The translations under genes were made by a program, and so were the position numbers. A DNA stretch of 50,806 bases from an uncultured Chlorobiaceae bacterium. Lineage in GTDB: Bacteria > Bacteroidota > Chlorobiia > Chlorobiales > Chlorobiaceae. The DNA is taken from NCBI GenBank assembly GCA_903887845.1, contig CAISRC010000084.1, positions 1 through 50,806 of the forward strand, given 5' to 3'. The notes under the pieces are model-generated. The model had not been told where the DNA came from. It worked only from the letters and a program-made list of their open reading frames with translations, and made no database searches. Shown piece by piece: positions 636 to 45,059 of this stretch; position 1 is the first letter of the stretch, and each line of letters opens with the position of its first letter.

Positions 636-2858
636 ATGAAATCACGTAGCATTATATTTATCGCTCTGGCAAGTATAGTCTTTATGGCGGTCCCTTCAAA
701 AAGTCATGCTGTCTCACCAAATTCTGATATCCTTCATTCGACTGCGGTCACCACAATTTCAATGGAAGCATTCAGGGCGGGCATTCTTGACCGGCAAGGA
801 ACTCTTGATCTTGCTGCGACTTGCTTGGCTGCGGGGCAAAACCAGAATGAGACTGAAATTGCCAACAAAATCGTTGTATTATACCCGAGTGATGATGAGA
901 TTCTGAAAATCGCGATTCTGCTATTTGAGAATACATCGCAATCGGAAAAGGCGCTGCCCTTATATGAACAGTTACGTAAACGTCACCCGGACGACACAAA
1001 ACTGACCGCTGATGCCGCCAGGGCATATTCCTGGGCCGGAAGATTAACAGAGTCTTTGAATCTTTACGATTTGGTCATCAATTCAGGGAACAGGAATGAT
1101 CTGATCCTCTCACAATATGCTGACGTTCTTTATGAAAATAAAGAGTATGTAAAAGCTGTTGTGCAATACCGCGAACTTTGGAAAAAAGGAAGCCTGCAAA
1201 AAAAACAGGCTATCAATTTTGTTCATGCTCTTATGGCAGCAGGCGAGCATGCAGAAAGTAACAAACTGCTCAATTCACTGGCGAAGCTTTATCCAGGAGA
1301 TACCGAGGTGCTTAAAGCAACGGCTGATGTCTCTTTCGCTATGAAGGATTATGGACGAGCCGCAAAGATTTATAGCGATCTGAATGTCAAACGACCCGAT
1401 GACCTTAGATTTTACACATGGCTCTCAGATGTTGCTATGGTAAGCAATGACTATCCTGAGGCCATTAAAATCAACAAACAGATCCTTGGACTTTCCCCGG
1501 AAAACCATCAGGCCATGTTGACAATCGCAAGGGCTTCAAGCTGGAGTGGAGATTATTCCACTGCGCTTTTTTATTATGATAAATTAATTGCATCAAGCAA
1601 TCCTGATCCAGTTTATTACCGCGAAAAGGCTCGTGTACTCGGATGGATGGGTAACCAGAGTGGTTCTGTTTCTCTGTATGATGGAGCTTTGCGCGCATAC
1701 CCCCAGAACAAAGCGCTGAAAGCTGAAGCTGAGGCTAAAAAAAACTATTACAGCAACACTTACCGGCCAGCCGTCAGGGCATACAAAGAATGGCTTGTTG
1801 CAGAACCAAAGCAGCCGGAAGCGCTTTTTGACCTCGGCCAGTTCTACCTACAAAATGGCAGATGGAAAGAGGCCATTGAAACCTATGATGAGCTTCTCAC
1901 TGAGATCCCGGATCATCGGCTGGCCGCATTGGCAAGACAAAAAGCAATAGTCACCTCGTCTATGATGACTATTAATAGCTGTGCGGAATATTTCAGTGCT
2001 CAAAGTGGCGGACGAGAAACTGATGTCAGCTTTTCTGGCTTTTATACTTCTCTTTCTTACCCGTTTCAAGACAGGCTAACTGGTTTTGTGAACCTTAACA
2101 GTAAATCTTACCGTTTTAAGCATGACCCGCAGACTCCATTAAGTAAGGGCATAACGCTCGGTTTCGAGTATCATAATCTCCCTGATATTCTGTTTCGCGG
2201 AGCTTACGGCTTTCATCAGAACCCAAGCTACCTGAGAGACAGTCGTACTGGCTTTCTAGAAACCGAAAGCCAGCCTCTCGACAATCTGCATCTCGGCCTT
2301 TCGTTCCATAAAGAAGATGTAATCTCAAATTACACGACACTCCAGAACAATCTGCAGACCAACCATTGGCAGGGACGGATAGTTTACGATGGATACCGCA
2401 GATGGCATGCAGGAATTGATTATGCCATAGATCACTATACCGATAATAAGAGGAAAAGCAGTCTAACCACCGGTATGGATATTACAGCGAACCTTCTTTA
2501 TGATCCGCAGCGCCTGAGTATTACCTATCGATTGCAGGATTATGGATTCGGTGCTGATTCCGAAGCTGGTTACTCTTTCTGGACGCCCTCATCATTCACT
2601 ACCCATACTGCAGGTATCGAATGGCAGCACGACCTCAATAAAGAACGTTTTCAGGGTGCAAATGCCGCATATTACACTGCTGCATTCCGTTTCAGTCTTG
2701 AGCCTAAAGGTAATGTCTCCCACCAGATTCATGCCGGTTTGCACCGTGACTGGAGCAACCGGTTTGCCACCTCGGTAGAGGCTCAATATACCTGGGACAC
2801 CAAGTCATCTATATACGAGGATAAACTGTTAAAAGCAGAATTTAAGTGGTTTTTTTAG
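636..2858 (+). CDS. TPR-repeat outer-membrane beta-barrel protein, likely polysaccharide export (BcsC/PgaA-like architecture)
   Basis: The 740-residue protein starts with a Sec signal peptide (hydrophobic core in residues 5-20, likely cleavage after SHA at about 25). Residues ~30-430 are built of degenerate tetratricopeptide repeats, with recurring A..Y...G.Y..A...Y patterns. From ~450 to the end the sequence alternates polar and aromatic residues in short strands and finishes KWFF, the aromatic C-terminus usual for an outer-membrane barrel. TPR plus C-terminal barrel is the layout of BcsC and PgaA, which carry a polymer from the inner membrane out of the cell. The next two genes, a processive GT2 synthase (27-base gap) and a GH8 hydrolase, support an export role. 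It is shorter than BcsC (over 1100 residues), so the exact polymer cannot be told. No clear Shine-Dalgarno precedes the ATG. Confidence 0.75.
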   Translation: MKSRSIIFIALASIVFMAVPSKSHAVSPNSDILHSTAVTTISMEAFRAGILDRQGTLDLAATCLAAGQNQNETEIANKIVVLYPSDDEILKIAILLFENTSQSEKALPLYEQLRKRHPDDTKLTADAARAYSWAGRLTESLNLYDLVINSGNRNDLILSQYADVLYENKEYVKAVVQYRELWKKGSLQKKQAINFVHALMAAGEHAESNKLLNSLAKLYPGDTEVLKATADVSFAMKDYGRAAKIYSDLNVKRPDDLRFYTWLSDVAMVSNDYPEAIKINKQILGLSPENHQAMLTIARASSWSGDYSTALFYYDKLIASSNPDPVYYREKARVLGWMGNQSGSVSLYDGALRAYPQNKALKAEAEAKKNYYSNTYRPAVRAYKEWLVAEPKQPEALFDLGQFYLQNGRWKEAIETYDELLTEIPDHRLAALARQKAIVTSSMMTINSCAEYFSAQSGGRETDVSFSGFYTSLSYPFQDRLTGFVNLNSKSYRFKHDPQTPLSKGITLGFEYHNLPDILFRGAYGFHQNPSYLRDSRTGFLETESQPLDNLHLGLSFHKEDVISNYTTLQNNLQTNHWQGRIVYDGYRRWHAGIDYAIDHYTDNKRKSSLTTGMDITANLLYDPQRLSITYRLQDYGFGADSEAGYSFWTPSSFTTHTAGIEWQHDLNKERFQGANAAYYTAAFRFSLEPKGNVSHQIHAGLHRDWSNRFATSVEAQYTWDTKSSIYEDKLLKAEFKWFF

Positions 2859-2885
2859 GCGCAAAATACCTTAGCTCCTTTACAG

Positions 2886-4394
2886 ATGCAGGATAAGAAA
2901 CTATCTCGGTATCTTTTGGTTCAGGTCACTGTACTTTTGTTAGTGCTTGTAATATATATATTTGTACGCATATATTACATAGCGGTAGCTCCCTTTACTT
3001 TGTTGGAGCAGGTGTTTAGCACTATGTTTTTTCTTGCAGAAACGTTTATTCTTTTTCATTCTTTCTTCTTTTTTTTAGACGTCCTCCGTGAAGACATGCC
3101 TCGGGAGGGTCCCCCGCAGGCAAAGCCTGGCAAAGATGCTTCTATTGCAATTCTGGTACCTGCCCGACATGAACCAAGAGAAGTTGTTGAAAATACCCTT
3201 TTGACCTGTCTCAACATGGCCTACGACAACAAAAAGGTTTATCTGCTTGATGATTCCTCGATAGAAAGTTACAAACAGGAATCAAGAGAAATTGCTAATG
3301 CCTTGGGGGCTGAAATTTTTACACGTATTGGCAACCGGGGAGCCAAGGCTGGTATGGTTAATGAAGTACTGAAGATTCTTACTGAAAAATATATTGCTAT
3401 TTTTGATGCCGACCAGAATCCTATGCCAAGTTTTCTTACAACACTTCTTCCTTTTATGGAGGGTGACGATCGGCTTGCCTTTATCCAGACACCGCAATTT
3501 TACTCCAACGGGGATATAAGCCCCGTTGCGATGGCTGCCCATAACCAGCAGGCAATTTTTTATGAGTACATCTGCCTTGGTAAATCAATGAATGAGGCGA
3601 TGTTCTGTTGCGGCACTAATGTAATATTTCGACGCGAAGCGATTGAAGAGGTGGGTAGATTTGACGAAGATACCGTTACCGAGGATATTGCAACATCTTT
3701 AAGACTACACTCGAAAGGCTGGAAATCGTTGTTCATGTACAAGGCCTATACCTTTGGTATGGCTCCAGAGGATCTGGGCTCCTACTTCAAGCAGCAGCAC
3801 CGCTGGGCACTGGGAACGTCCCAGTTATTCCGAAAACTGGTCGTCTTGTTTTTTACAAATATTAAAGCGCTTAAACCAATACAGTGGCTCGAATACATCA
3901 TATCAACAACTTATTATTTTATCGGATGGTCTTATTTGTTCCTCATGGCTGGCCCTATCCTGTATATCTTTTTCAATATTAACTCGTATAACATTGATCC
4001 ATGGGCTTATACGATGACTTTTGTTCCGTTTTTTATTCTATCAAATGTGATTTTTTACTCAAGTATGGTAAAGAAAAAATATACACGCCTCAATATGCTC
4101 TTTGTTCAGATGCTGACGGCTCTCTCCATGCCTGTATATTTAAGTGCAACAATAATTGGATTGTTTAATCTGGATAAAAAAGGGTTTCAGGTAACTCCAA
4201 AGGGTGGAGCTACGAATGTTCCCCTGAAAGACATCTGGCCTCAGTTACTTTTATTCGGTGTGGTTGTCGTGACACTGCTATGGGGTTTATTCAGACTTTC
4301 TCACGGATGGGATTATGTACTTGTGATCAATGTTTTCTGGACAGCGTTTCAGTGCGTTATGCTTTGTGGAATTTTTTATTTTAACAAAAAATGA
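2886..4394 (+). CDS. Processive family 2 glycosyltransferase (cellulose synthase-like)
   Basis: An inner-membrane polysaccharide synthase of 502 residues. Two N-terminal membrane segments (about 10-32 and 42-64) precede the GT-A domain, and several more follow it. All the signature motifs of processive GT2 enzymes are visible: DD at 122-123, DAD at 174-176 (UDP-sugar and metal), TED at 265-267 (catalytic base) and QQHRW at 303-307 (holds the growing chain). This set is typical of cellulose, hyaluronan and similar synthases. It ends soon after the last membrane segments, so the PilZ domain that lets BcsA respond to cyclic-di-GMP is missing. It sits between an outer-membrane export protein and a GH8 lipoprotein, and its TGA overlaps an ATG at 4391, which suggests translational coupling. 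The sugar used cannot be decided from sequence. Confidence 0.85.
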   Translation: MQDKKLSRYLLVQVTVLLLVLVIYIFVRIYYIAVAPFTLLEQVFSTMFFLAETFILFHSFFFFLDVLREDMPREGPPQAKPGKDASIAILVPARHEPREVVENTLLTCLNMAYDNKKVYLLDDSSIESYKQESREIANALGAEIFTRIGNRGAKAGMVNEVLKILTEKYIAIFDADQNPMPSFLTTLLPFMEGDDRLAFIQTPQFYSNGDISPVAMAAHNQQAIFYEYICLGKSMNEAMFCCGTNVIFRREAIEEVGRFDEDTVTEDIATSLRLHSKGWKSLFMYKAYTFGMAPEDLGSYFKQQHRWALGTSQLFRKLVVLFFTNIKALKPIQWLEYIISTTYYFIGWSYLFLMAGPILYIFFNINSYNIDPWAYTMTFVPFFILSNVIFYSSMVKKKYTRLNMLFVQMLTALSMPVYLSATIIGLFNLDKKGFQVTPKGGATNVPLKDIWPQLLLFGVVVVTLLWGLFRLSHGWDYVLVINVFWTAFQCVMLCGIFYFNKK

Positions 4395-5568
4395 AAACTT
4401 TTTTTTTCGGTTTTTATTCCTTGCTGTTCTGCCGTTCTTGCTGATTAGTTGTTCAACCGTGCCCCAGAATTCTGAAGAGATTTCTCTTAGATCCTGGTCA
4501 CACTTCAAGCATACGTTCCTTCGATCAGGAAGAGTTATTCGTCCAACAAACAACAACGATACTGTTTCCGAAGGAGAGGCTTACGTCATGCTTCGTGCTG
4601 TACTCATGAATGACCGGAAAACCTTTAATGAGTGTCTTGCCTGGACTGAAGCAGTGCTTTCACGCAAGAAATCGCATGGCGACCGGTTGCTTGCCTGGCA
4701 TTTTGAAAATGGACAGGTCAGCGATACAGCCGCAGCATCCGATGCCGATATCGATTATGCATTCAGCCTTATTCTGGCTTATCGTACATGGCATGATAAA
4801 CAGTATCTTCAAATTGCCCGGGAAGTACTAAAAAGTGTGCTTGACCACGAAACTGCAGTAATAAATGGAAGGCTCTATTTTCTTCCATGGCCAGGCAGAA
4901 AAAACGGAACAGATGAACTCGTAGCACTGAATCCGTCATACTATGCACCATCGCATTTCAAACTTTTTTATGAGGTCAGTGCCGACAATCGCTGGATTCA
5001 GCTTTCCGATACAACGTATGATCTGCTTGGACAGCTTCTTGTTTCATCCGGCAAATCGAAAGAAGGGGGATTGGTTCCTGACTGGATTGCAGTTGACAAG
5101 CAGGGGAAAATAAGAACTCTGCCAGGAAAACCTTTTGTTTATGGATGGGATGCTGTAAGAGTTCCACTAAGAATAGCCGCTGATTATTACCTCTATGACG
5201 ACCAGCGTGCACTCAGCATACTTCGCTGGTTTTCAGGATCTTTTGAAAAAGAATTCAGAAGCAACTTCAGCATCTATTCCTGTAAGGACTCAACAAAAAG
5301 AAGCTATGAAAACGCGCTTTTCTATAGTGCGGCCTATGCTGCAACTGAGGCGGCAGGATCTTCAATCGCTCCAGATATTCTTCGACGCCTTAGACAATGT
5401 ATTCGACGGAACGGGAACAGCTTCTATTACAACTCCCCTGACGACTACTATATCAATAGTCTTTCCTGGCTGCCAGAATATTATCTGATAAATAAAACAA
5501 CAATCAAAGATAAATCAAGACCACTTGATTCAGAAAAAAAGCTCTCTTTCCAATGGATGCATCTTTAA
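4330..5568 (+). CDS. GH8-family glycoside hydrolase lipoprotein (BcsZ-like); start codon uncertain
   Basis: The body matches glycoside hydrolase family 8, the family of the endoglucanase BcsZ that trims nascent cellulose. SEGEAY carries the likely general acid (Glu81 from the first ATG) and ASDADIDYAF the family's conserved acidic residues (138-142). LISC is a lipobox, with Cys41 the probable lipid anchor. The in-frame ATG at 4330 lies deep inside the synthase gene, has no ribosome binding site and gives an odd N-terminus. A GTG at 4366 is another option. An ATG at 4391, in the classic ATGA overlap with the synthase stop, reads MKTFFF but is out of frame. It would enter this frame if the run of nine T at 4399-4407 were ten. 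Length and fold otherwise look intact. The product probably acts in the periplasm on the polymer of this cassette. Confidence 0.75.
   Translation: MFSGQRFSALCFVEFFILTKNENFFFRFLFLAVLPFLLISCSTVPQNSEEISLRSWSHFKHTFLRSGRVIRPTNNNDTVSEGEAYVMLRAVLMNDRKTFNECLAWTEAVLSRKKSHGDRLLAWHFENGQVSDTAAASDADIDYAFSLILAYRTWHDKQYLQIAREVLKSVLDHETAVINGRLYFLPWPGRKNGTDELVALNPSYYAPSHFKLFYEVSADNRWIQLSDTTYDLLGQLLVSSGKSKEGGLVPDWIAVDKQGKIRTLPGKPFVYGWDAVRVPLRIAADYYLYDDQRALSILRWFSGSFEKEFRSNFSIYSCKDSTKRSYENALFYSAAYAATEAAGSSIAPDILRRLRQCIRRNGNSFYYNSPDDYYINSLSWLPEYYLINKTTIKDKSRPLDSEKKLSFQWMHL
4399..4407 (+). repeat. Nine-T homopolymer at the 5' end of the GH8 gene
   Basis: Nine consecutive T follow the coupled ATG at 4391. With nine T the frame from that ATG ends at a TGA after 17 codons. 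With ten it would run into the GH8 lipoprotein with a textbook signal peptide (MKTFFFRFLF, then lipobox LISC). The tract may therefore be a slippage or phase-variation site, or a sequencing error. Confidence 0.6.
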
Positions 5569-7047: not shown

Positions 7048-9021
7048 CTACTCATAACGGAGGGCTTCTACCGGTTTCAGTTCTGCTGCTTTTCTGGCTG
7101 GCCAGAGGCCAAAAAAGATACCGATTGCCGCTGAAAAAGCTGTTGCAAGAACCACAGAAATAAGTGATGTCTTTACAGCCCACCCCGCAAAAAAGGAGAG
7201 AATGAGGGAAATACCAATACCGGCGAGTATCCCGATAAAACCTCCGCTAATGGTCATACCGACCGATTCAACAAGAAATTGAAGCATGATATCGCTTTTT
7301 CTTGCCCCGATAGCCTTGCGCAATCCTATCTCTCTGGTCCGTTCAGTTACTGAAACAAGCATAATGTTCATGATACCAATTCCTCCCACCACAAGCGAGA
7401 TAGCTGCTATCGAGCCCAGCAGAAGGCTCATGGTCTGGGTGGTGCTGCTGAGCATCTGCTGAATTTCAGTCATGTCCCTGATATTGAAAGTATCATCATC
7501 ATCTTTCAAGCGATGCCGTTTACGAATCAGCTCGCTTATCGCGATTTTTGCCTGGTCAATAAGGGTTGGGGAAATGACTTCAACAAAAATTCCACTGAGA
7601 TAATCCTTGCCAAGCACACGGTACATAGCCGTCGTGACAGGAATAATCACCATGTCATCCTCATCCTGGGGCCCGGAAAAACCTTTTGCCGGGGCGATCC
7701 CGATAACCGTGAAATTAATCCGGTTGATTTTTATGGTCTTGCCCAGCGGATTGCTGTTACCAAAAAGCTCCTTGACAACTGTCACACCAACGATGGCTAC
7801 CTTTTCCCGCCTTTGAATATCATCCTGAGTAAACCACCTCCCAACCAACGGCACCGACGCCCTCATGGTGCCATAATCAAACCCTGCGCCGGTAAGGCTT
7901 GTGCTCCAGTTTTTGTTACCGTAAACAATCCGTCCACCTCCATTGACCACCCCGGTCGCATTTTTCACCAGCGTTCGAAGCCCTGCAATATCGTCCACAT
8001 CAGTAAAGGTAAAACGGGCAACAGCTCCGGCACCCTGAGCCGCACCTCTTATCTTTGCTGATCCTCCCCTGATTGAGAGCATGTTGGAACCCATTGATTT
8101 CAATTGTTCCTGCATGGCCGCTTTTGCACCCTCACCAAGCGCCATCATGGCAATCACCGATGCAACCCCGACAAATATCCCGAGAACGGAAAGAAAGGAG
8201 CGCAGCTTATTTGCAAGAATAGCCTGAAGAGCTTGAAAGATAAATCCAGTAAACCGCCCATCCTGCCATAACGAAACCTTCTTTGCAGCTTGCGCTTCAA
8301 AATTAAGACCTCCTGCAACTGTCGCTGAAGGCCCCATCCCGCTCTTGCGTTCATCAGAGACTATGATACCGTCCCGCATGGTAATAATACGACCAGCATA
8401 GGCTGCGATCTCGGTTTCATGAGTTACCATAATGATGGTTTTACCCTCATCATGAAGTCCCTTGAGAATCTTCATGATTTCTGCTGAATTTTTCGTATCG
8501 AGATTACCGGTCGGTTCATCTGCAAAAATAATCATCGGATCGCGGATGAGAGCCCTCGCTATAGCTACACGCTGCTGCTCGCCACCTGATAGCTGGTTTG
8601 GTGTATGATCAATTCTATGTTCAAGTCCAACCAGCTTAAGGCGTTCTATTGCTTCCTTGCGAAAATCCCCCTTGATGCCGCTATAGATATGAGGAAGACG
8701 TACGTTATCGACAATGTTCATTCGCTTGAGCAAATGAAACTGCTGAAAGACAAATCCGGCAACCGTATTGCGCAATCCAGCCTGCTCATCTTCCGTCATA
8801 GTGTTAACATTATGACCAAGCAGCAGGTAGTTACCCTTGTCGGGGGTATCAAGAAGTCCGAGAATCTGAAGCAGAGAGGATTTGCCTGATCCCGAAGGCC
8901 CCATAATCGCAACAAACTCACCCTGCTCAATCGTCACTGAAACACCCCGCAAAGCTTGCACAGTGCTTTCGCCAATAAGGTATGTCCGGTGGACATCAAC
9001 AAGTTCAAGCATGGCACTCAT
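7048..9021 (-). CDS. macB: MacB-type ABC exporter: fused ATPase and FtsX-like permease
   Basis: Inner-membrane motor of a tripartite exporter, 657 residues (E. coli MacB 648). The N-terminal nucleotide-binding domain has Walker [10 protein letters not shown] (41-49), signature [15 protein letters not shown] and Walker [12 protein letters not shown] linker leads to the first membrane segment near 265-295, then a large periplasmic domain, then three C-terminal membrane segments with the FtsX-family motif [18 protein letters not shown]. It is the last gene of a minus-strand operon, and its ATG overlaps the stop of the adaptor gene by four bases. MacB systems export macrolides, peptides or lipid-like compounds, and the substrate here is unknown. 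A downstream ATG (residue 4) is an alternative start. Confidence 0.9.
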
Positions 9022-9989
9022 TGTTTCTTCCTGCTCCGTTGGGGCGTAAAGGGATTGGAGCCTCCATTGTTTTTCGGTAAAACAAACGAAGTATCAGGAA
9101 GCAATACAATCGAGTTATCCGTCAGTCCAGTAATAATCTCGATATTCCGGTCATCCTGTATACCGGTCTGCACCAACCTGTAGTGATGCGCAGAAGCTGT
9201 TTCGTCGCTTTTCTGGAGTACCATACTTTTGCCATTTTTACTCTGAACAGCTCCAAGCGGCAACAGCAGCACATCACTCTTTTCCTGAACAATAATCCTG
9301 ATATTGGCGCTCATGCCCGAACGAAAAACATCGGGAATTCGCTCAGGAAGAACATCGACGTTATAGATATTGACATTATTCTGCAAATGCGACTCATAGT
9401 AGATATGCCCAACAACCCCGTTTACCCTGATTTCAGGATATGCATCAAGCCCTATCACCGCCTTCTGGCCTGCCTTTACCCTTCCGATATCGGTTTCATC
9501 GACATAAGCTTTCACAATGAGACGATCGGAAAGCACAAAAAGTGAGTCGCTCGCAGTCACCGTTTGTCCGGGGTCGACACTTCGAACAATAACCTGCCCC
9601 TCCATCGGGGCCATGACCGCAGTTTCTTTGTAAACCTTCTGCCAGTACTCCTGCTCACTCTTCCCTTGCAGCTTGGCTGCATCAAGCAATGCCGCCCGCT
9701 CGGTCGAACTCAGCATAGCAAGCACTTCTCCTTTTTTCACCATTTGCCCCTCTTCAACAAGAATCTCCTCTATCCTGCCTCCAACCGATGACTGAATTTT
9801 CACACGGTTTTGAGGTTCAACCGCACCAGTAGTCGATACTGATGAACTGATGGTTCCTCTTGAAGGACGAATTTCATCAAAACGCTTTTCGGAACCCCGG
9901 TTTCCCCTGAATACAAAGAATAATGCAACCCCTAAAACAAAAAGCGTCCCCACAATACCCCATACAAGCTTACTCCTGCTGATCATCAA
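9018..9989 (-). CDS. macA: MacA/HlyD-family periplasmic adaptor of the exporter
   Basis: Membrane-fusion protein that links the MacB-like motor to the outer-membrane channel. An N-terminal membrane anchor spans about residues 8-27. It is followed by a lipoyl-like half ([19 protein letters not shown] and, past a hairpin, [18 protein letters not shown]), a beta-barrel domain ([18 protein letters not shown]) and a membrane-proximal domain. At 323 residues it is shorter than E. coli MacA (371), because the alpha-helical hairpin is unusually short. That implies a different reach to the outer-membrane channel. It overlaps the TolC-like gene by 20 bases and macB by 4 bases, so the three are surely one transcript. 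Confidence 0.88.
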
Positions 9990-28088: not shown

Positions 28089-29948
28089 ATGACCATTCAA
28101 GCTTCCGACCTTACGCAGGATGTTATAGACCTTTCCCGGAAATTTCCTGAAGAGTGGCTTCTGAAAGCCAAACAAAACGGATTTTCTGATTTTCAGCTTG
28201 CTAATATTTTCAATACTGTAGAACCCTCCATTCGAGCACTCAGAAAACATTATGGCATTGAATCCGTCTTCAAGACAGTCGACACCTGTGCAGCGGAATT
28301 TGACGCTAAAACACCTTACCATTATTCAACCTACGAAGAGGAAAACGAATCCGTTTCATCTGATCGCAAAAAAGTCATCATCCTTGGCGGAGGTCCCAAC
28401 CGGATAGGTCAGGGAATCGAATTTGACTACTGTTGTGTTCAGGCCGTTTTCGCACTCAGAGAGGCGGGCTATGAGACAATTATGGTCAACTGTAATCCTG
28501 AAACCGTTTCGACAGACTACGATATTGCAGACAAGCTCTACTTTGAACCGCTCACTTTTGAAGACACCATCCGCATCATTGAACATGAAAAGCCTCTCGG
28601 AGTTATCGTCAGCTTTGGAGGCCAGACGCCCCTGAAGCTCTCGACCAAACTTCATGAAGCAGGTGTCACCATTCTCGGCACTTCATCAAAAGGCATTGAC
28701 CTTGCAGAAGACCGCAAAAAATTTGGCGCTCTTCTTGAACAGCTTGCTATTCCCCATCCTGAGTACGGAACCGCCGTAAGCTTTGAGGAAGCCAAGGAGA
28801 TCACCCGGAGAATCGGCTACCCTGCACTGGTCAGGCCAAGTTACGTACTGGGCGGACGGGCAATGAAAATTGTCTACAATGATGACTCTCTCAAAGAATA
28901 TGTCGATCAGGCGCTTTTCATTACCGAAAAGTATCCGCTGCTGGTAGACCGTTTTCTTGAAACCGCAGTGGAATTTGATATTGATGCCATTGCCGATACC
29001 ACTGACTGCGTCATCAGCGGTATCATGCAGCATGTTGAGGCAGCAGGCATACACAGCGGTGACTCCACCTCTATTCTGCCCTATCATAACATCAGTCAGA
29101 ATGTTATTGCCACAATGAAGGCATATACCAAAACCCTTGCAACAAATCTTAAGGTCGTAGGGTTAATGAATATCCAGTATGCCGTCCAGAACGAAAGTGT
29201 CTATGTGATTGAGGTCAATCCGAGAGCAAGTCGGACAGTTCCTTTTGTCGGCAAGGCAACCGCCATTCCGGTCGTCAAAATAGCCACCCGCGTTATGCTT
29301 GGCGAAAAGCTCAGCGATCTGCGCAAAGAGTATGACCTGAAAGATTGTGATGAGCTCGGCATGAAGCATCTGGCCATTAAGGAGCCTGTCTTCCCATTCT
29401 CAAAATTTGTCAAATCCGGTGTTTATCTCGGCCCTGAAATGCGCTCGACCGGTGAAGCAATGAGCCTTGCTGAAGAGTTTCCAGAGGCCTTTGCCAAAGC
29501 CTATCAGGCAGCAAGCATGCAGCTCCCTCTCTCCGGCGCAGTCTTCATCAGTGTTAACGACCAGGACAAAAACCAGCGCATTATCGCCATTGCAAAGGCG
29601 CTGTTCCGCATGGACTTTGATCTGGTGGCAACCGCTGGCACACACCAGTTCCTGACTGACAACGGAATCGAATGCAAAAAAGTCTTCAAGGTCGGGGAAG
29701 AGGGACGGCCCAACATCTTTGACATTATCAAGCACGGAAAAATCAACTTTGTCATCAACACACCGAGAGGCGAAAAAGCGCTGCACGACGAAGAGGCTAT
29801 CGGCGCAGCATCGGTGCTGAGCAATGTACCGTTTGTGACCACCATCGAGGCTGCAGAGGCATCAGTACAGGCTATTGACTGTATCCGCCACCAGGAGTTC
29901 GGTGTTAAAAGTCTTCAGGAGTACGCATCCTACCGCAACAAAGCCTAA
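28089..29948 (+). CDS. carB: Carbamoyl-phosphate synthase large subunit, C-terminal half as a separate gene
   Basis: CarB is normally ~1070 residues with two ATP-grasp halves. This 619-residue protein matches only the second part. It begins in the oligomerisation domain (KQNGFSDFQLANIF, VDTCAAEFDAKTPY) and continues through the carbamate-phosphorylating ATP-grasp domain (GGGPNRIGQGIEFDYCC, VNCNPETVSTDYD, RPSYVLGGRAM, VIEVNPRASRT). It ends with the MGS-like allosteric domain. Upstream is the divergent ribBA gene, so the N-terminal half must lie elsewhere. An ATG, a good promoter and an intact frame argue for a true split gene, as known for some other prokaryotes, not a truncation. It serves arginine and pyrimidine synthesis. 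Confidence 0.9.
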   Translation: MTIQASDLTQDVIDLSRKFPEEWLLKAKQNGFSDFQLANIFNTVEPSIRALRKHYGIESVFKTVDTCAAEFDAKTPYHYSTYEEENESVSSDRKKVIILGGGPNRIGQGIEFDYCCVQAVFALREAGYETIMVNCNPETVSTDYDIADKLYFEPLTFEDTIRIIEHEKPLGVIVSFGGQTPLKLSTKLHEAGVTILGTSSKGIDLAEDRKKFGALLEQLAIPHPEYGTAVSFEEAKEITRRIGYPALVRPSYVLGGRAMKIVYNDDSLKEYVDQALFITEKYPLLVDRFLETAVEFDIDAIADTTDCVISGIMQHVEAAGIHSGDSTSILPYHNISQNVIATMKAYTKTLATNLKVVGLMNIQYAVQNESVYVIEVNPRASRTVPFVGKATAIPVVKIATRVMLGEKLSDLRKEYDLKDCDELGMKHLAIKEPVFPFSKFVKSGVYLGPEMRSTGEAMSLAEEFPEAFAKAYQAASMQLPLSGAVFISVNDQDKNQRIIAIAKALFRMDFDLVATAGTHQFLTDNGIECKKVFKVGEEGRPNIFDIIKHGKINFVINTPRGEKALHDEEAIGAASVLSNVPFVTTIEAAEASVQAIDCIRHQEFGVKSLQEYASYRNKA

Positions 29949-29955
29949 CACATCC

Positions 29956-30438
29956 ATGATCATGCCTGAACAAATTCAGCAACATCTCGAAGAGTCCATA
30001 CAGCTTGAATTGAACCTCGCAAAACTCTACACCATCTTCAGTGACTGTTTGTCGGATGATGAGGATTTCTGGTGGGATCTTGCTATGGAAGAACAAGGCC
30101 ACGCCTCCCTTCTGCAGCAGGAGAAAAAGCAACCCCAGCAAAAAGAGTTCTTTCCGGAAAATCTTCTGGCCAAAGATCTGCAATCCCTTATCGATACCAA
30201 TACAAAAATTTCAGCACTGATCGATACCTGCTCGTCCAAGCCTCCATTAAGAGCGGACGCATTCAATATCGCATACGATCTTGAAATGGCTGCAGGAGAA
30301 TCGCATTTTCAGCAATTTCTCGATAGCCCGACAAGCTCATTTTCTGCCAATATTTTTAAACAACTGAATCAGGAAGACCGCGATCATGCCGAAAGAATCC
30401 TTCAGTACATGAAAGAAAATAAAATTAACAAACAGTAA
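29956..30438 (+). CDS. Ferritin-like (rubrerythrin-type) four-helix protein
   Basis: A ~160-residue helical protein with the spacing of iron ligands seen in rubrerythrin/ferritin-like domains: an early Glu in ESIQLELNLAKLY, then EEQGHASLL (ExxH), a Glu in NIAYDLEMAAGESHF, and QEDRDHAERIL near the end. There is no rubredoxin-like Cys4 tail. It probably binds a di-iron centre for oxidative-stress or iron handling, but that is inference. The frame is open from 29875 inside carB. ATG 29956 (or 29962) gives the sensible start eight bases after the carB stop, so it is likely co-transcribed. Confidence 0.7.
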   Translation: MIMPEQIQQHLEESIQLELNLAKLYTIFSDCLSDDEDFWWDLAMEEQGHASLLQQEKKQPQQKEFFPENLLAKDLQSLIDTNTKISALIDTCSSKPPLRADAFNIAYDLEMAAGESHFQQFLDSPTSSFSANIFKQLNQEDRDHAERILQYMKENKINKQ

Positions 30439-41280: not shown

Positions 41281-41374
41281 GTATTACTGTTCAGACATTA
41301 CATGGAAATGTATTTTATTAATAGTACTATAGATTCCAATTTGGAATAAGAAAAAAGAAATGATAAGTTTTTTT

Positions 41375-41496: not shown

Positions 41497-41571
41497 ATGG
41501 TAACTGACCATACATCCACGACAAAGCAGCTCATTGAATCCATTATAACAAGCGCAAAAGATGTTTATTAA
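41497..41571 (+). pseudogene. Truncated remnant of the small ferritin-like gene
   Basis: Just before and overlapping the first nuclease gene, a 24-codon frame ends TTKQLIESIITSAKDVY. This matches the last residues of the intact small gene at 44597-44836 (TTNQLIESIETSGKNVF), and the overlap with the nuclease start is the same. An in-frame stop at 41488-41490 lies upstream, and nothing like the rest of the small gene is visible. The 5' part was therefore lost when or after the nuclease unit was duplicated. The leftover may still help translation of the nuclease start. Confidence 0.65.
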
Positions 41572-42898
41572 TAAAGATTTGCTCGAATTTTTCGGCTCCA
41601 TGATGGAGATAAAAAAACAGAAGCGTGATATTTTCAATTCTCTTGCGGCTGATGTTGATGATTCAGACATAAAAAAAACTTTGCTTCGTATAGGTATGGA
41701 TGAGCAGCGACACGTTGATCAACTTCAGCAAAGTATTGATCTTGTTAACGGGGTGGAATCCCCCGTACCTGCCAGAGCCGCTCAACCGGCTATCCCGCAA
41801 ACTACCTTGCGGCCCCCGGACATCGAAGAACAGCAACCTGTTGAACACGTTAAGGAAACTCCCCAGTTTGTTAACGAAATCCCTGTTTATGATACAATCG
41901 CTCATTTCCAGCCAGTTATTGCGCCAGCTATTTTACCACGCACAGACATGGATGAGCGGCAACACATTGACCAACTTCAGCCGATTATTACAATTCTTAA
42001 CGATGTTCAAGCTCCCGACTCGATCACTCATCTTCAATCCACCACTTCGCAAACTGTTCACAGTATGAATACGATTAAGAATCCATTAGGAGAGATCTTC
42101 GGCTTTACAGCTACAGACCAGTCACCGAAAGCACAACGGTACCGTTCGCATCGCCATTGTCCTTTCAATAACAAGGTTCCTAACTGTACCAACGACCAGT
42201 TGAAAAATCCTCTCGGTGTATGCAGTGTTTTACACAACGACAAACCGGTCATCACCTGTCCTGTCCGGTTTCGTGAAGACTGGATGATTACCGATGATGC
42301 CGCCGAGTTCTTTTTTGAAGAGGGCACGCGCTGGAGTTCATTAACAGAGGTTCACCTGAATGATGCCAATGGAAAATCAGCCGGGAATATTGATGTTATG
42401 CTCGTCGCCTATGATGATCGGGGCAAAATCATTGACTTCGGTGCCATGGAGGTTCATGCCGCATACATTTCCGGAAATTTACGTGAGCCCTTTGAATATT
42501 ACATGCAGGATCCAAAGTCTAATGCGTTAATGGACTGGACAGCGCAACCGAACTATCCTCAGCCGGATTTTCTTTCAGCGGCAAGAAAAAGTCTTGTTCC
42601 TCAGCTCTTGTTTAAAGGAAATATTCTGCATTCATGGAACAAGAAAATGGCAGTGGCCATTGATAAAAGCTTGTTCGACACTCTGCCTTCATTGAATCGC
42701 GTTGAAAAAGAAGATGCTGATATCGCCTGGTTTATTTACAATCTTGAGCTGATAACTGAAGGAGATAAAGAACGCTATCAGCTTAAAAAAGTTGATGTGG
42801 TATACACGCAATTCCAATCGACGCTGTCGTCCATCACCGCAATATCTGCAGGCAATGTTGGCGATTTTGTGAAATTTATACCCGAACTGGCCAGTTAA
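41561..42898 (+). CDS. NotI-family restriction endonuclease-like protein with N-terminal ferritin-like segment and three 42-residue repeats
   Basis: A 445-residue protein. Residues ~173-445 match the NotI-type restriction endonuclease fold, recognisable from HCPFNNKVPNCTND, NPLGVCSV, ITCPVRFREDW, FFEEGT.WSSLTEV.LNDA and SAGNIDV.LVAYDD. Cys200, Cys209, Cys221 and Cys233 fit the four-cysteine iron site of NotI. The probable catalytic residues are Asp278 (GNID) and Glu297 (MEVHA), with His299 where a Lys or Gln would be expected. Residues 1-45 (NKDLLEFFGSMMEIKKQKRD) with DEQRHVDQL look like a ferritin-like helical domain. Three 42-residue repeats start at 46, 88 and 130. The ATG lies inside the remnant of a small gene. 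Target site and activity are unknown, and no methyltransferase is adjacent. Confidence 0.8.
   Translation: MFINKDLLEFFGSMMEIKKQKRDIFNSLAADVDDSDIKKTLLRIGMDEQRHVDQLQQSIDLVNGVESPVPARAAQPAIPQTTLRPPDIEEQQPVEHVKETPQFVNEIPVYDTIAHFQPVIAPAILPRTDMDERQHIDQLQPIITILNDVQAPDSITHLQSTTSQTVHSMNTIKNPLGEIFGFTATDQSPKAQRYRSHRHCPFNNKVPNCTNDQLKNPLGVCSVLHNDKPVITCPVRFREDWMITDDAAEFFFEEGTRWSSLTEVHLNDANGKSAGNIDVMLVAYDDRGKIIDFGAMEVHAAYISGNLREPFEYYMQDPKSNALMDWTAQPNYPQPDFLSAARKSLVPQLLFKGNILHSWNKKMAVAIDKSLFDTLPSLNRVEKEDADIAWFIYNLELITEGDKERYQLKKVDVVYTQFQSTLSSITAISAGNVGDFVKFIPELAS
41696..42067 (+). repeat. Three tandem 126-bp (42-codon) units in the first nuclease gene
   Basis: Protein repeats begin at Met46, Ile88 and Met130, exactly 42 residues apart, with starts MDEQRHVDQLQ, IEEQQPVEHVK and MDERQHIDQLQ and shared later positions (VNGVESP / VNEIPVY / LNDVQAP; HFQP / HLQS). 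The third unit is slightly short. The units have diverged from each other, so the duplications are not recent. The paralogue at 43525-44607 has one such unit. Confidence 0.8.
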
Positions 42899-43216
42899 TA
42901 CAACAGGTCTTTCGCAGAACCATCATTACGGCTTGTACCCCGTAAAAGACTTCTTAAAAGTTTTTTACGGGGTACAAGCCGTAATGCAATTGGTATTTCC
43001 CACCACGGGCTAATGATGCCAACTGTTTTTTTGATCGAAAGGAAATGGTGTAACCGAAAAAAGAACTTTTATCGAGAAAACATAGTTATTGAAATGTTAA
43101 GCTGTTATTGTATTTGCAAAGCAATGGCAGAGCTCAACTAACGTATTACTGTTGAATAAACGCAAATCAGTAACAAGTTACCCTATTATTACTCTATAAA
43201 ATACAAGGAGCTTATT
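42899..43216. other. AT-rich spacer between the first nuclease gene and the Nif11-like gene
   Basis: About 318 bases without a gene. The first 90 hold the 23-bp inverted repeat described separately. The rest is AT-rich, with a TATAAA-like box near 43195 and the Shine-Dalgarno of the next gene. I see no gene remnant here. Confidence 0.6.
42925..42985. repeat. Perfect 23-bp inverted repeat (long hairpin)
   Basis: Arms 42925-42947 and 42963-42985 are exact reverse complements over 23 bases. The 15-base centre can add a G-T pair and four further pairs (ACTT/AAGT), leaving a 5-base loop and a hairpin of about 28 bp. It starts 26 bases after the nuclease stop and has no trailing T run. It could be a transcript end, a protein-binding palindrome or the end of a lost mobile element. 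Confidence 0.85.
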
Positions 43217-43408
43217 ATGTCAGAAGAGCAAGCAAAAAAGTTCATCGAAAAGTTGCGATCAGATGTTGAGCTTAAGGAGCGCCTGAGTAAATTTATTAAG
43301 GATGAGGGATTTTCATGTACGCTGGGCGAGATCAGAAAGGTAGAGTGGGATTTGATGATGACTCATTATATAGCCGGGCTCCCTGCATCTGAGCACTGGG
43401 AAAGATAA
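43217..43408 (+). CDS. Nif11-like small peptide (RiPP leader-type domain)
   Basis: A 63-residue protein beginning MSEEQAKKFIEKLRSDVELK, which matches the opening helix of the Nif11 domain. A shortened middle follows, then EGFSCTLGEIRKVE, like the second Nif11 helix. In RiPP pathways Nif11 serves as leader peptide, but here there is no double-Gly cleavage site, only one Cys, and no modifying enzyme or peptidase nearby. It is therefore an orphan whose role is unknown. The Shine-Dalgarno AAGGAG (43205-43210) is strong and well spaced, so it is probably expressed. It lies in the spacer between the two inverted nuclease genes. Confidence 0.65.
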   Translation: MSEEQAKKFIEKLRSDVELKERLSKFIKDEGFSCTLGEIRKVEWDLMMTHYIAGLPASEHWER

Positions 43409-43454
43409 GGAGACTTTATCCTGTTTTCACGCCGTCACAGGAAACCTTGCTTGT

Positions 43455-43502
43455 AGAGTCGTGCAAAAGTGGCATGATTGCTTGTCGCTCACGCACGACT
43501 CT
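43455..43502. repeat. Inverted repeat before the second nuclease gene's 3' end
   Basis: AGAGTCGTGC (43455-43464) and GCACGACTCT (43493-43502) pair perfectly over 10 bases with a 28-base loop. Outside them, AAACCT and AGGGTTT extend the symmetry imperfectly. It sits between the Nif11-like gene and the convergent nuclease gene and may end both transcripts. Confidence 0.55.
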
Positions 43503-43524
43503 CGTAGGGTTTGCTATACCATTT

Positions 43525-44607
43525 TTAAACAGCTAATTCCGGAATAAATCTCACAAAATCGCCAACATTACCAGGGGTAATCGCTGTTAAAGCCGAAAGC
43601 GTGGGCTGGAATTGCGTATAAACCACATCCGTCTTTTTAAGCTGATAACGTTCTTTCCCACCATCATTTACCGGTTCAAGATCGTAAATGAGCCATGCAA
43701 TATCGGCCTCTTCCTTTTTAACTCGATTCAAGGAAGGCAGAGTGTCGAACAAGCTTTGATTAATCGCTACTGCCATTTTCTTGTTCCATGAATGCAAAAT
43801 CCTGCCTTTAAACAAGAGCTGAGGAACAAGACTATTCCTTGCCGCTGAAAGAAAATCCGGCTGAGGATAGTTCGGTTGCGCTGTCCAGTCCATTAAAAAA
43901 TTAGAGCTTGGATCCTGCATGTAATATTCAAAAGGCTCACGTAAATTTCCGGTAATGTATGCGGCATGAACCTCCAGTGCTCCAAAGTCAATCATTTTGC
44001 CCCGATCATCATAAGCGACGAGCATAACATCAATATTTCCTGCTGACGTCCCTCCAGCATCATTCAGATGAACCTCTGTTAATGAGCTCCATTGCGTTCC
44101 CTCTTCAAAAAAGAAGGCGGCTGCGTCGTCAGTAATCATCCAGTCTTCACGAAACCGGACAGGACAGGTGATGACCGGTTTATCGTTGTATAAAACACTG
44201 CAGACCCCAAGAGGATTTTTGCTATGGTCATTGGTGCAGTTAGGAACCTTGTTATTGAATGGACAGTGGCGGTGCGAACGGTACCGTTGTGCTTTCGGTG
44301 ACTGGTCAGTGGTCGTAAAACCAAAAACCTCCCCTAATGGATGCTTAAGCATATTCATACTATGAACATTTAGCAAAGTGGTAGATTGAAAATGAGGAGT
44401 AGCATCATGAGCTGGCACGTCTTTAACAAGCTCGGGACGCTGCTGAATCTGATCAACGCGTGGCTCAGCACCCAAACCTGTCAGCGGCAACGTTTCAATG
44501 GCCGTATCAGCAACATCAGCAACGAGCGTGGCAAGAACATCACGCTTCTGTTTTTTAGCTTCTGTCATGGACCCGAAGAATCCAAGGAACTCTTTATTAA
44601 AAAACAT
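43525..44607 (-). CDS. Second NotI-family endonuclease-like protein with N-terminal ferritin-like segment
   Basis: A paralogue of the gene at 41561-42898 on the opposite strand, 360 residues. The NotI-type domain keeps every visible motif: HCPFNNKVPNCTND, Cys115, Cys124, Cys136 and Cys148, GNIDV with Asp193, and LEVHA with Glu212 and His214. The N-terminus (NKEFLGFFGSMTEAKKQKRD) is the same ferritin-like-looking segment, but only one 42-residue repeat follows. The 85-residue size difference is two repeat units plus one residue. ATG 44607 was chosen over ATG 44634 because it aligns with the start of the other copy and overlaps the end of the small upstream gene in the same way. Lower conservation of the linker than of the nuclease core suggests the core is under selection. 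Confidence 0.8.
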   Translation of the reverse strand: MFFNKEFLGFFGSMTEAKKQKRDVLATLVADVADTAIETLPLTGLGAEPRVDQIQQRPELVKDVPAHDATPHFQSTTLLNVHSMNMLKHPLGEVFGFTTTDQSPKAQRYRSHRHCPFNNKVPNCTNDHSKNPLGVCSVLYNDKPVITCPVRFREDWMITDDAAAFFFEEGTQWSSLTEVHLNDAGGTSAGNIDVMLVAYDDRGKMIDFGALEVHAAYITGNLREPFEYYMQDPSSNFLMDWTAQPNYPQPDFLSAARNSLVPQLLFKGRILHSWNKKMAVAINQSLFDTLPSLNRVKKEEADIAWLIYDLEPVNDGGKERYQLKKTDVVYTQFQPTLSALTAITPGNVGDFVRFIPELAV

Positions 44608-44836
44608 TTTTTCCGCTCGTTTCAATGGATTCAATGAGCTGATTTGTCGTTAATTTATGTTCTTGCAGATCCGAATTCAACTTTTGAAGCATGTCCAGTA
44701 TCTTGGCCTGAACGTCCTTTCCAAGTGTTGAATATCTCAGCACATGCTGGATATGGTTCGAGTAAATAGCAATAACAGACTCCTCGCTTTGCTCGATAGC
44801 ACTGATTTTTTTAAGTAATTCTTTTTTTTCAATCAT
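44597..44836 (-). CDS. Small helical protein, ferritin-like in appearance, coupled to the second nuclease
   Basis: A 79-residue all-helical protein (from ATG 44836, KELLKKISAIEQSEESVIA, then IYSNHIQHVLRYSTLG, a long helix and DLQEHKLTTNQLIESI). The Glu and His spacing resembles small ferritin-like proteins in which a first helix with paired Glu and a later His bind metal, but the match is weak. Its 3' end overlaps the nuclease start by 11 bases, so the two are translationally coupled. A truncated copy of its last codons precedes the other nuclease. The longer frame up to 44923 looks non-coding. Possible roles are a partner, chaperone or inhibitor of the nuclease. Confidence 0.6.
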   Translation of the reverse strand: MIEKKELLKKISAIEQSEESVIAIYSNHIQHVLRYSTLGKDVQAKILDMLQKLNSDLQEHKLTTNQLIESIETSGKNVF

Positions 44837-45059
44837 TGTAGCATTTTTTTGCGAGAGCGTATGGCCAATGAAGCAAGGTTTTTTTAGGTATTTTTTCCAG
44901 CAGACTATCAAAAAATCTATCATTTCTTTTGCCCTATTCCAAATAGCAATGCATAATTCCGGTAAAATTCAATCCCATCAAAGAGAGAAGAAATGGGTAA
45001 CTGGTTTCCGCAGTGTACCTGGCCGATAACGGTTGACGGCAAAAATGAGTGTCCCTGAC

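What the first reader, a model, noticed from the sequence alone, without database searches (positions are those of the whole stretch)
41518..44836. NotI-family nuclease domain fused to a ferritin-like segment and coupled to a small ferritin-like protein
Seen: two paralogous genes, each with a NotI-type core (four Cys, GNID, EVH) behind ~45 residues that look like a ferritin-like helical domain (ExxH-like DEQRH in one copy). One copy overlaps a 79-residue helical gene by 11 bases. Known: NotI binds iron through four cysteines. Inference: a two-component unit in which metal- or redox-sensing helical proteins control a DNA-cutting enzyme. I know of no described system with this layout.
Basis: partly seen in the sequence, partly recalled or inferred. 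Interest (0 to 1): 0.85.

Follow-up and report, generated by a model that had tools for sequence, protein, structure and literature searches.

The report
NotI nuclease fused to ferritin-like hairpin
In some green sulfur bacteria (Chlorobium), a restriction-enzyme gene has lost its protective methylase and become fused to half of a small ferritin-like protein that still overlaps its old partner gene, giving a conserved DNA-acting protein of unknown trigger, but not the metal sensor first proposed.

Summary
Both NotI-family genes, the helical N-terminus and the 79-aa gene with its 11-base overlap are confirmed. The fusion occurs in 17 of 65 Chlorobium genomes and has one origin (support 99/100 and 100/100). 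The N-terminus (residues 5-62) is a two-helix hairpin like encapsulated ferritin, followed by a disordered linker (66-172) and a NotI core.

Ten further loci carry the same overlapping pair without NotI. There a 79-aa protein overlaps a stand-alone hairpin, usually inside a TPR/GT2/GH8 exopolysaccharide operon. So a NotI gene was captured onto an older pair, and its methylase was left behind.

Metal or redox sensing is not supported. The helix-A metal glutamate (E18) is kept in 11/11 stand-alone hairpins and is lysine in 25/25 fusions. The 79-aa protein shows no detectable ferritin homology. In this window the unit is inverted-duplicated: copy 1 keeps the hairpin but lost the 79-aa gene, and copy 2 keeps the 79-aa gene with a decayed hairpin. 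Both cores are under strong purifying selection but read ExH where NotI has ExQ.

Best reading: a methylase-less NotI core held and controlled by a metal-free ferritin-derived docking domain. Whether it cuts or only binds DNA is open.

The parts
41561..42898 (+). Copy 1: EncFtn-like hairpin (res. 1-64) + disordered linker (66-172) + NotI core (174-445); D278, E297, H299, four Cys
   Evidence: PF12183 201.9 bits; AF2; Foldseek NotI 3c25 E 1.9e-10; hairpin dN/dS 0.04-0.08, core 0.06-0.10 against other species
41561..41752 (+). Intact ferritin-like two-helix hairpin of copy 1 (helices 5-31, 35-62), K18, E48xxH51
   Evidence: 11-sequence alignment A3
41503..41568 (+). Remnant of the lost 79-aa gene in front of copy 1 (last ~22 codons)
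   Evidence: Profile match E 3.3e-4; inverted repeat I2 41506-41675/44493-44662
41328..41373 (+). Sequence matching the region upstream of the 79-aa gene (44910-44955), kept in front of copy 1; possible shared promoter region
   Evidence: Inverted repeat I3, 80%
43217..43408 (+). Nif11-like 63-aa peptide gene, C-terminal tail LPASEHWER
   Evidence: Nif11 PF07862 27.9 bits; present in 15 of 17 fusion loci, not found in stand-alone-pair loci; invariant LPASEHW in 10 aligned
43525..44607 (-). Copy 2: decayed hairpin + short linker + NotI core (ExH)
   Evidence: PF12183 185.5 bits; core dN/dS 0.04-0.09, hairpin 0.25-0.68
44597..44836 (-). 79-aa partner protein (two-helix hairpin), overlaps copy 2 by 11 bases
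   Evidence: AF2 helices 4-34, 40-73, pLDDT 83; family in 26/65 genus genomes; dN/dS 0.09-0.30
636..5568 (+). TPR / GT2 (cellulose-synthase-like) / GH8 operon: in relatives the pair or fusion sits directly at its end or start; here 36 kb away
   Evidence: Pfam; co-occurrence 25/2/2/36 across 65 genomes

Best explanation
Origin (well supported): an older overlapping gene pair in Chlorobium encodes a 79-aa helical hairpin and an EncFtn/DF-type half-ferritin hairpin, and usually sits in a TPR/GT2/GH8 exopolysaccharide operon. Once in the genus, a NotI-type restriction gene was captured onto the end of the hairpin gene through a linker, without its D12 methylase. On that branch the hairpin lost its helix-A metal glutamate (E18K). 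A Nif11-like peptide gene is found with the fusion. In the window's subclade the unit moved to the holB-cutA interval and was duplicated tail to tail. Copy 1 keeps the intact hairpin and lost the 79-aa gene; copy 2 keeps the 79-aa gene and has a decayed hairpin, so each genome keeps one intact set plus two cores. Mechanism (inferred): the metal-free hairpin is a constitutive docking and dimerisation domain, as the metal-free EncFtn E32A mutant still assembles. It holds the NotI core, with the 79-aa protein as its translationally coupled partner, so that a methylase-less DNA-acting protein is controlled by protein assembly rather than by methylation. Whether the core cuts (restrained nuclease) or only binds (regulator) is not decided; I lean slightly to a restrained nuclease.
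For: Stand-alone pairs with the same overlap. Single origin of the fusion in both the pair tree (99/100) and the core tree (100/100). Hairpin fold. E18 in 11/11 stand-alone, K18 in 25/25 fused. EncFtn ligands E32/Y39/E62/H65 have the same spacing as E18/F25/E48/H51, and E32A lost metal at the site yet assembled. D12 methylase next to canonical NotI genes; no close relative of it in 13 of 17 fusion genomes including this one. Strong purifying selection on copy-1 hairpin, 79-aa gene and both cores, weak on the linker. One intact hairpin and one intact 79-aa gene retained per duplicated genome. Co-occurrence with the GH8 operon gene, Fisher p 2e-13 uncorrected for phylogeny.
Against: No complex could be modelled: binding of the 79-aa protein to the hairpin is inferred only from gene overlap and co-retention. 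Copy 2's core has no functional hairpin yet is equally conserved, so the core may act without it. H60 of the 79-aa protein and ExxH of the hairpin vary among fusions. Co-occurrence with the operon is not corrected for phylogeny. ExQ to ExH in the 16 duplicated copies could mean loss of cutting.
Confidence: 0.5

Rival explanations
1. Restrained active nuclease: the core still cuts a specific site and the 79-aa partner (perhaps with the Nif11-like peptide) keeps it off, as in a toxin-antitoxin or abortive defence unit, releasing it on a trigger.
For: Cys4, D278 and a D/E at 297 are kept in all 25 fused cores; all nine single-copy fusions keep the NotI-type Q, several in genomes with no close relative of the methylase; core dN/dS about 0.1; overlapping partner upstream.
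Against: No toxicity data; both duplicated copies carry ExH; PADLOC gives only a generic type II REase match; vertical rather than mobile distribution; no hairpin relative in viral contigs and no relative of the 79-aa gene on plasmids.
Confidence: 0.35
2. DNA-binding regulator: the NotI core has been domesticated as a sequence-specific binder with weak or no cutting, and the hairpin/79-aa part links it to the exopolysaccharide operon it derives from.
For: Q to H in all 16 duplicated copies and E to D in G241, G310 and in copy 2 of G117 and G301, while the rest of the core is strongly conserved; absence of methylase; association with the GT2/GH8 operon.
Against: Catalytic D and acidic residue never lost; single-copy fusions keep a NotI-like active site; no binding site identified.
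Confidence: 0.3
3. Metal/redox-sensing ferritin-like switch controlling a nuclease.
For: Ferritin-like hairpin confirmed; ExxH kept in most intact fusions; NotI core retains Cys4, which binds iron in NotI (PMC4081073).
Against: E18K in all fusions; ExxH lost in G311, H51 to D in G312; 79-aa protein not detectably ferritin-like.
Confidence: 0.07
4. Ordinary type II restriction system whose methylase lies elsewhere in the genome.
For: G241, G310, G311 and G244 have a 63-69% identical methylase elsewhere.
Against: The window genome and seven near-complete fusion genomes in all (97% or more complete) have no close relative of the methylase; none is adjacent to a fusion.
Confidence: 0.1
5. Passenger fusion: only the hairpin/79-aa pair matters and the NotI part is a decaying leftover.
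For: Linker looks like translated former intergenic DNA; an internal Met remains at about the stand-alone start in 24 of 25.
Against: Core dN/dS mostly 0.04-0.12 in both copies; all 25 cores intact in frame.
Confidence: 0.05

Closest known systems
NotI restriction endonuclease (PDB 3bvq/3c25; PF12183)
   Same: Whole PF12183 profile, four-Cys motif, D...E active site, fold (Foldseek E 1.9e-10)
   Different: Fused behind a ferritin-like hairpin and disordered linker; ExH instead of ExQ in the window; no methylase; NotI itself is a stand-alone enzyme
Encapsulated ferritin EncFtn / EncB / EncC (e.g. PDB 5n5e, 7s8t, 7s5c)
   Same: Two-helix half-ferritin, 0.8-1.1 A over 54-58 residues in the best matches; stand-alone relatives share the E/E/H ligand spacing (18/48/51 against 32/62/65)
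   Different: Fused form has K18 in place of the glutamate; attached to a nuclease; no encapsulin gene or cargo peptide noticed in the loci read
PA2169-type DUF2383 (PF09537) and rubrerythrin-like four-helix proteins
   Same: Weak HMM match to the first helix pair in the same register
   Different: Only one helix pair; scores below the curated cut-off
Canonical Chlorobium NotI + D12 methylase restriction-modification units (e.g. L033, L041)
   Same: Core 64-72% identical to copy 1, same genus
   Different: Start directly at the core, no hairpin, methylase immediately downstream, ExQ
Type II toxin-antitoxin pairs
   Same: Small partner gene overlapping and upstream of an effector with a potential DNA-cutting domain
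   Different: No toxicity shown; the 79-aa protein matches no antitoxin family; copy 1 has no partner of its own

Membership tests
NotI family (PF12183) | Profile match over the whole domain above the curated cut-off | tested here: met
   201.9 and 185.5 bits against 22; fold match E 1.9e-10
NotI family (PF12183) | Cys4 metal motif | tested here: met
   C200, C209, C221, C233 kept in all 25 fused cores
NotI family (PF12183) | D...ExQ active site (Q in NotI: PMC4081073) | tested here: not met
   D278 and E297 present but H at 299 in both window copies; Q in all nine single-copy fusions
Type II restriction-modification system | Cognate methyltransferase | tested here: not met
   No close relative of the NotI-linked D12 methylase in the window genome
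Type II restriction-modification system | Site-specific DNA cleavage | not testable with these tools
   Needs purified protein
Encapsulated-ferritin-like hairpin | Two antiparallel helices superposing on EncFtn | tested here: met
   Helices 5-31, 35-62, pLDDT about 90; rmsd 0.8 A to 5n5e, probability 0.99, but E about 1
Encapsulated-ferritin-like hairpin | Ligand triad E, E, H | tested here: not met
   E48 and H51 kept, E18 is K in all fusions; triad complete in most stand-alone relatives, with H51 read as Q in three
Encapsulated-ferritin-like hairpin | Iron binding / ferroxidase activity | not testable with these tools
   Needs purified protein
Ferritin-like fold for the 79-aa protein | Sequence or fold match to ferritin-like proteins | tested here: not met
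   Pfam, PDB sequence and Foldseek searches give no ferritin among the matches listed; hhalign to hairpin probability 2.4
Toxin-antitoxin module | Partner neutralises a toxic effector | not testable with these tools
   Only the gene overlap and co-retention were shown
Nif11 leader family (43217-43408) | Nif11 domain above cut-off | tested here: met
   PF07862 27.9 bits against 23.8; TIGR03798 31.2 just under 32.3

The most novel reading that the evidence does not exclude
A new kind of controlled nuclease: a methylase-less NotI-type enzyme that uses a ferritin-derived hairpin, stripped of its metal site, as a docking switch for a small overlapping partner, recruited from an exopolysaccharide operon and tied to a Nif11-like peptide.
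Probability: 0.3. Interest if true: 0.8.

Novelty: new variant of a known kind. Interest (0 to 1): 0.6.

Why it matters
Restriction enzymes without methylases raise the question of how a cell keeps a sequence-specific nuclease without cutting itself. Here evolution left a readable series: stand-alone ferritin-like pair, single fusion, loss of the metal ligand, duplication with complementary loss. Each step can be tested in vitro. It also reveals an undescribed conserved pair of small helical proteins tied to a cellulose-like exopolysaccharide operon in green sulfur bacteria, and a natural case of a di-iron hairpin turned into what looks like a metal-free assembly domain.

Tried and rejected
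Metal/redox sensing by the fused hairpin: rejected as the main reading because E18 is lysine in every fusion. The 79-aa protein as a second ferritin half: no match by profile, PDB sequence or fold search. Phage or plasmid origin: no hairpin relative in viral contigs, no relative of the 79-aa protein on plasmids, and only a distant NotI-like match in one phage. Nif11 as unique to the unit: rejected, since more distant relatives are scattered in the genus with similar E-H/N/Y/F-W tails; the one at the fusion is a distinct conserved subgroup. PDB sequence search for the core: the single copy-1 sequence found nothing, and the profile found NotI only weakly (E 0.077), so the fold search was used. 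I did not test target-site avoidance, because the methylase of the canonical relatives belongs to an adenine class and the target site is therefore unknown and probably not GCGGCCGC. A literature search for a restriction endonuclease with a ferritin-like domain found no paper describing this; that library is open-access only.
Full report
WHAT IS THERE. The window is one contig (G000:C84) of a Chlorobium-like genome; the nearest named relatives are uncultured Chlorobiaceae and Chlorobium MAGs. Two NotI-family genes lie tail to tail: 41561-42898 (+) and 44607-43525 (-), at 201.9 and 185.5 bits to PF12183. The arms of this inverted duplication are 85% complementary over 905 nt. A 79-aa gene (44836-44597, -) overlaps the ATG of copy 2 by 11 bases, and a Nif11-like 63-aa gene (43217-43408, +) lies between the copies.

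RECURRENCE. A PF12183 search of 296 genomes of the phylum gave long forms (more than 350 aa) only in this genus. The 79-aa family occurs in 26 of 65 genus genomes and the hairpin in 29 of 98 genomes of the order, all in this genus. Combining these with loci read one by one, 17 genomes carry the fusion (8 with two copies, 9 with one). Ten loci carry the same pair without NotI, and an eleventh (G075) has the hairpin with an open 79-aa-like frame upstream. The overlap is 11 bases in 26 of 27 loci and 23 in one.

THE HAIRPIN. AlphaFold2 gives helices 5-31 and 35-62 at pLDDT about 90, a linker 66-172 below 50, and a folded core. Foldseek matches the hairpin to EncC, EncFtn, EncB and PA2169 at 0.8-1.3 A and probability 0.96-0.99; E-values are about 1, as expected for two helices. 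Profiles of the hairpins find designed di-iron hairpins (1mft, E 3.3e-5) and align ungapped to P. furiosus EncFtn 5n5e (E 0.0068). In R. rubrum EncFtn the iron ligands are E32, Y39, E62 and H65, and E32A removes metal yet still forms decamers (PMC5012862). The same spacing here is E18, F25, E48, H51. E18 is present in 11 of 11 stand-alone hairpins and is lysine in 25 of 25 fusions; ExxH is also broken in G311 and G312. So the fused hairpin has very probably lost its di-metal site. Whether it then assembles metal-free, as E32A does, is inference.

THE 79-AA PROTEIN. It is a predicted two-helix hairpin (pLDDT 83). Its best fold match is HP0062 (E 0.37), it has no PDB or Pfam family, and it shows no detectable similarity to the ferritin-like hairpin.

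ORIGIN. Stand-alone pairs mostly lie at the end (L095, L096, L101-L103) or start (L097, L100, L104) of an operon of a TPR protein, a cellulose-synthase-like GT2 and a GH8 glycosidase; exceptions are L098 and L099. All nine single-copy fusions lie beside the same GH8 gene (coordinates). Presence of the pair and of GH8 across 65 genomes: 25 both, 2 pair only, 2 GH8 only, 36 neither, Fisher p 1.7e-13, not corrected for phylogeny. The window carries the operon at 636-5568, 36 kb from the unit. Fused pairs form one side of a branch (99/100), and so do fused NotI cores (100/100), so one capture event is the simplest reading. Canonical NotI genes of the genus begin at about the conserved internal Met of the fusions and are followed by a D12 adenine-class methylase.

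THE CORE. All 25 fused cores keep four Cys, D278 and E or D at 297. The third active-site residue is Q in NotI (PMC4081073), in the methylase-linked relatives and in all nine single-copy fusions, but H in all 16 duplicated copies. Core dN/dS is 0.04-0.14, most often below 0.1, in both copies. The copy-1 hairpin is 0.04-0.08 in comparisons involving the window and up to 0.15 in one other pair; the linker is mostly 0.3-0.6; the copy-2 hairpin is 0.25-0.68. In copy 1 the 79-aa gene is reduced to its last ~22 codons with an upstream match retained. Each duplicated genome thus keeps one intact hairpin and one intact 79-aa gene, which suggests that both are needed, though not necessarily by each other.

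METHYLASE. The NotI-linked methylase has no close relative in the window genome (98.8% complete) or in 12 other fusion genomes. Four fusion genomes have it elsewhere at 63-69% identity.

THE NIF11 GENE. It is present at 15 of 17 fusion loci (absent in G256 and G296) and was not found at stand-alone pairs, always ending LPASEHW in the ten aligned. Haft et al. describe Nif11-derived peptides as natural-product precursors in several phyla including Chlorobi (PMC2887384). No modification enzyme was noticed here; its role is unknown.

CONCLUSION. Shown: the architecture, its recurrence, single origin, selection pattern, loss of the metal glutamate, and absence of a close methylase relative. Inferred: physical pairing of the 79-aa protein with the hairpin, docking as the hairpin's role, and protein-level control of the core. 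Undecided: cutting or binding.

Noticed in passing
window 636-5568 (+): TPR / GT2 / GH8 operon (cellulose-like exopolysaccharide); in relatives it directly adjoins the pair or fusion.
   Followed up: yes
G000:C106 (L159:8782-9039), L160-L169: A scattered family of Nif11-like peptides in Chlorobium with a conserved C-terminal E-[HNYF]-W tail (GYEHWEG, GYENWCG, GYEYWVG); no modification enzyme noticed nearby in the stretches read.
   Followed up: partly
L035 and L110 (G117, G301): NotI cores of the two inverted copies group together within this lineage although their hairpins differ, suggesting gene conversion between the copies (or separate duplication).
   Followed up: partly
window 42927-42990: A long near-perfect inverted repeat (tacggcttgtaccccgtaaaa ... 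ttttacggggtacaagccgta) just after copy 1, possible terminator.
   Followed up: no
window 29875-30438 (+): 187-aa ORF with a weak rubrerythrin match at its C-terminus (E 3.5e-4), unrelated to the finding.
   Followed up: no
PP003920.1:38740-39351: Distant NotI-like match in Pseudomonas phage vB_Pae_U8 under an annotated hypothetical protein and a DNA-cytosine methyltransferase.
   Followed up: no
L031 (G015), 8214-9111: Canonical NotI gene appears split into two frames in this genome, with the methylase intact downstream.
   Followed up: no
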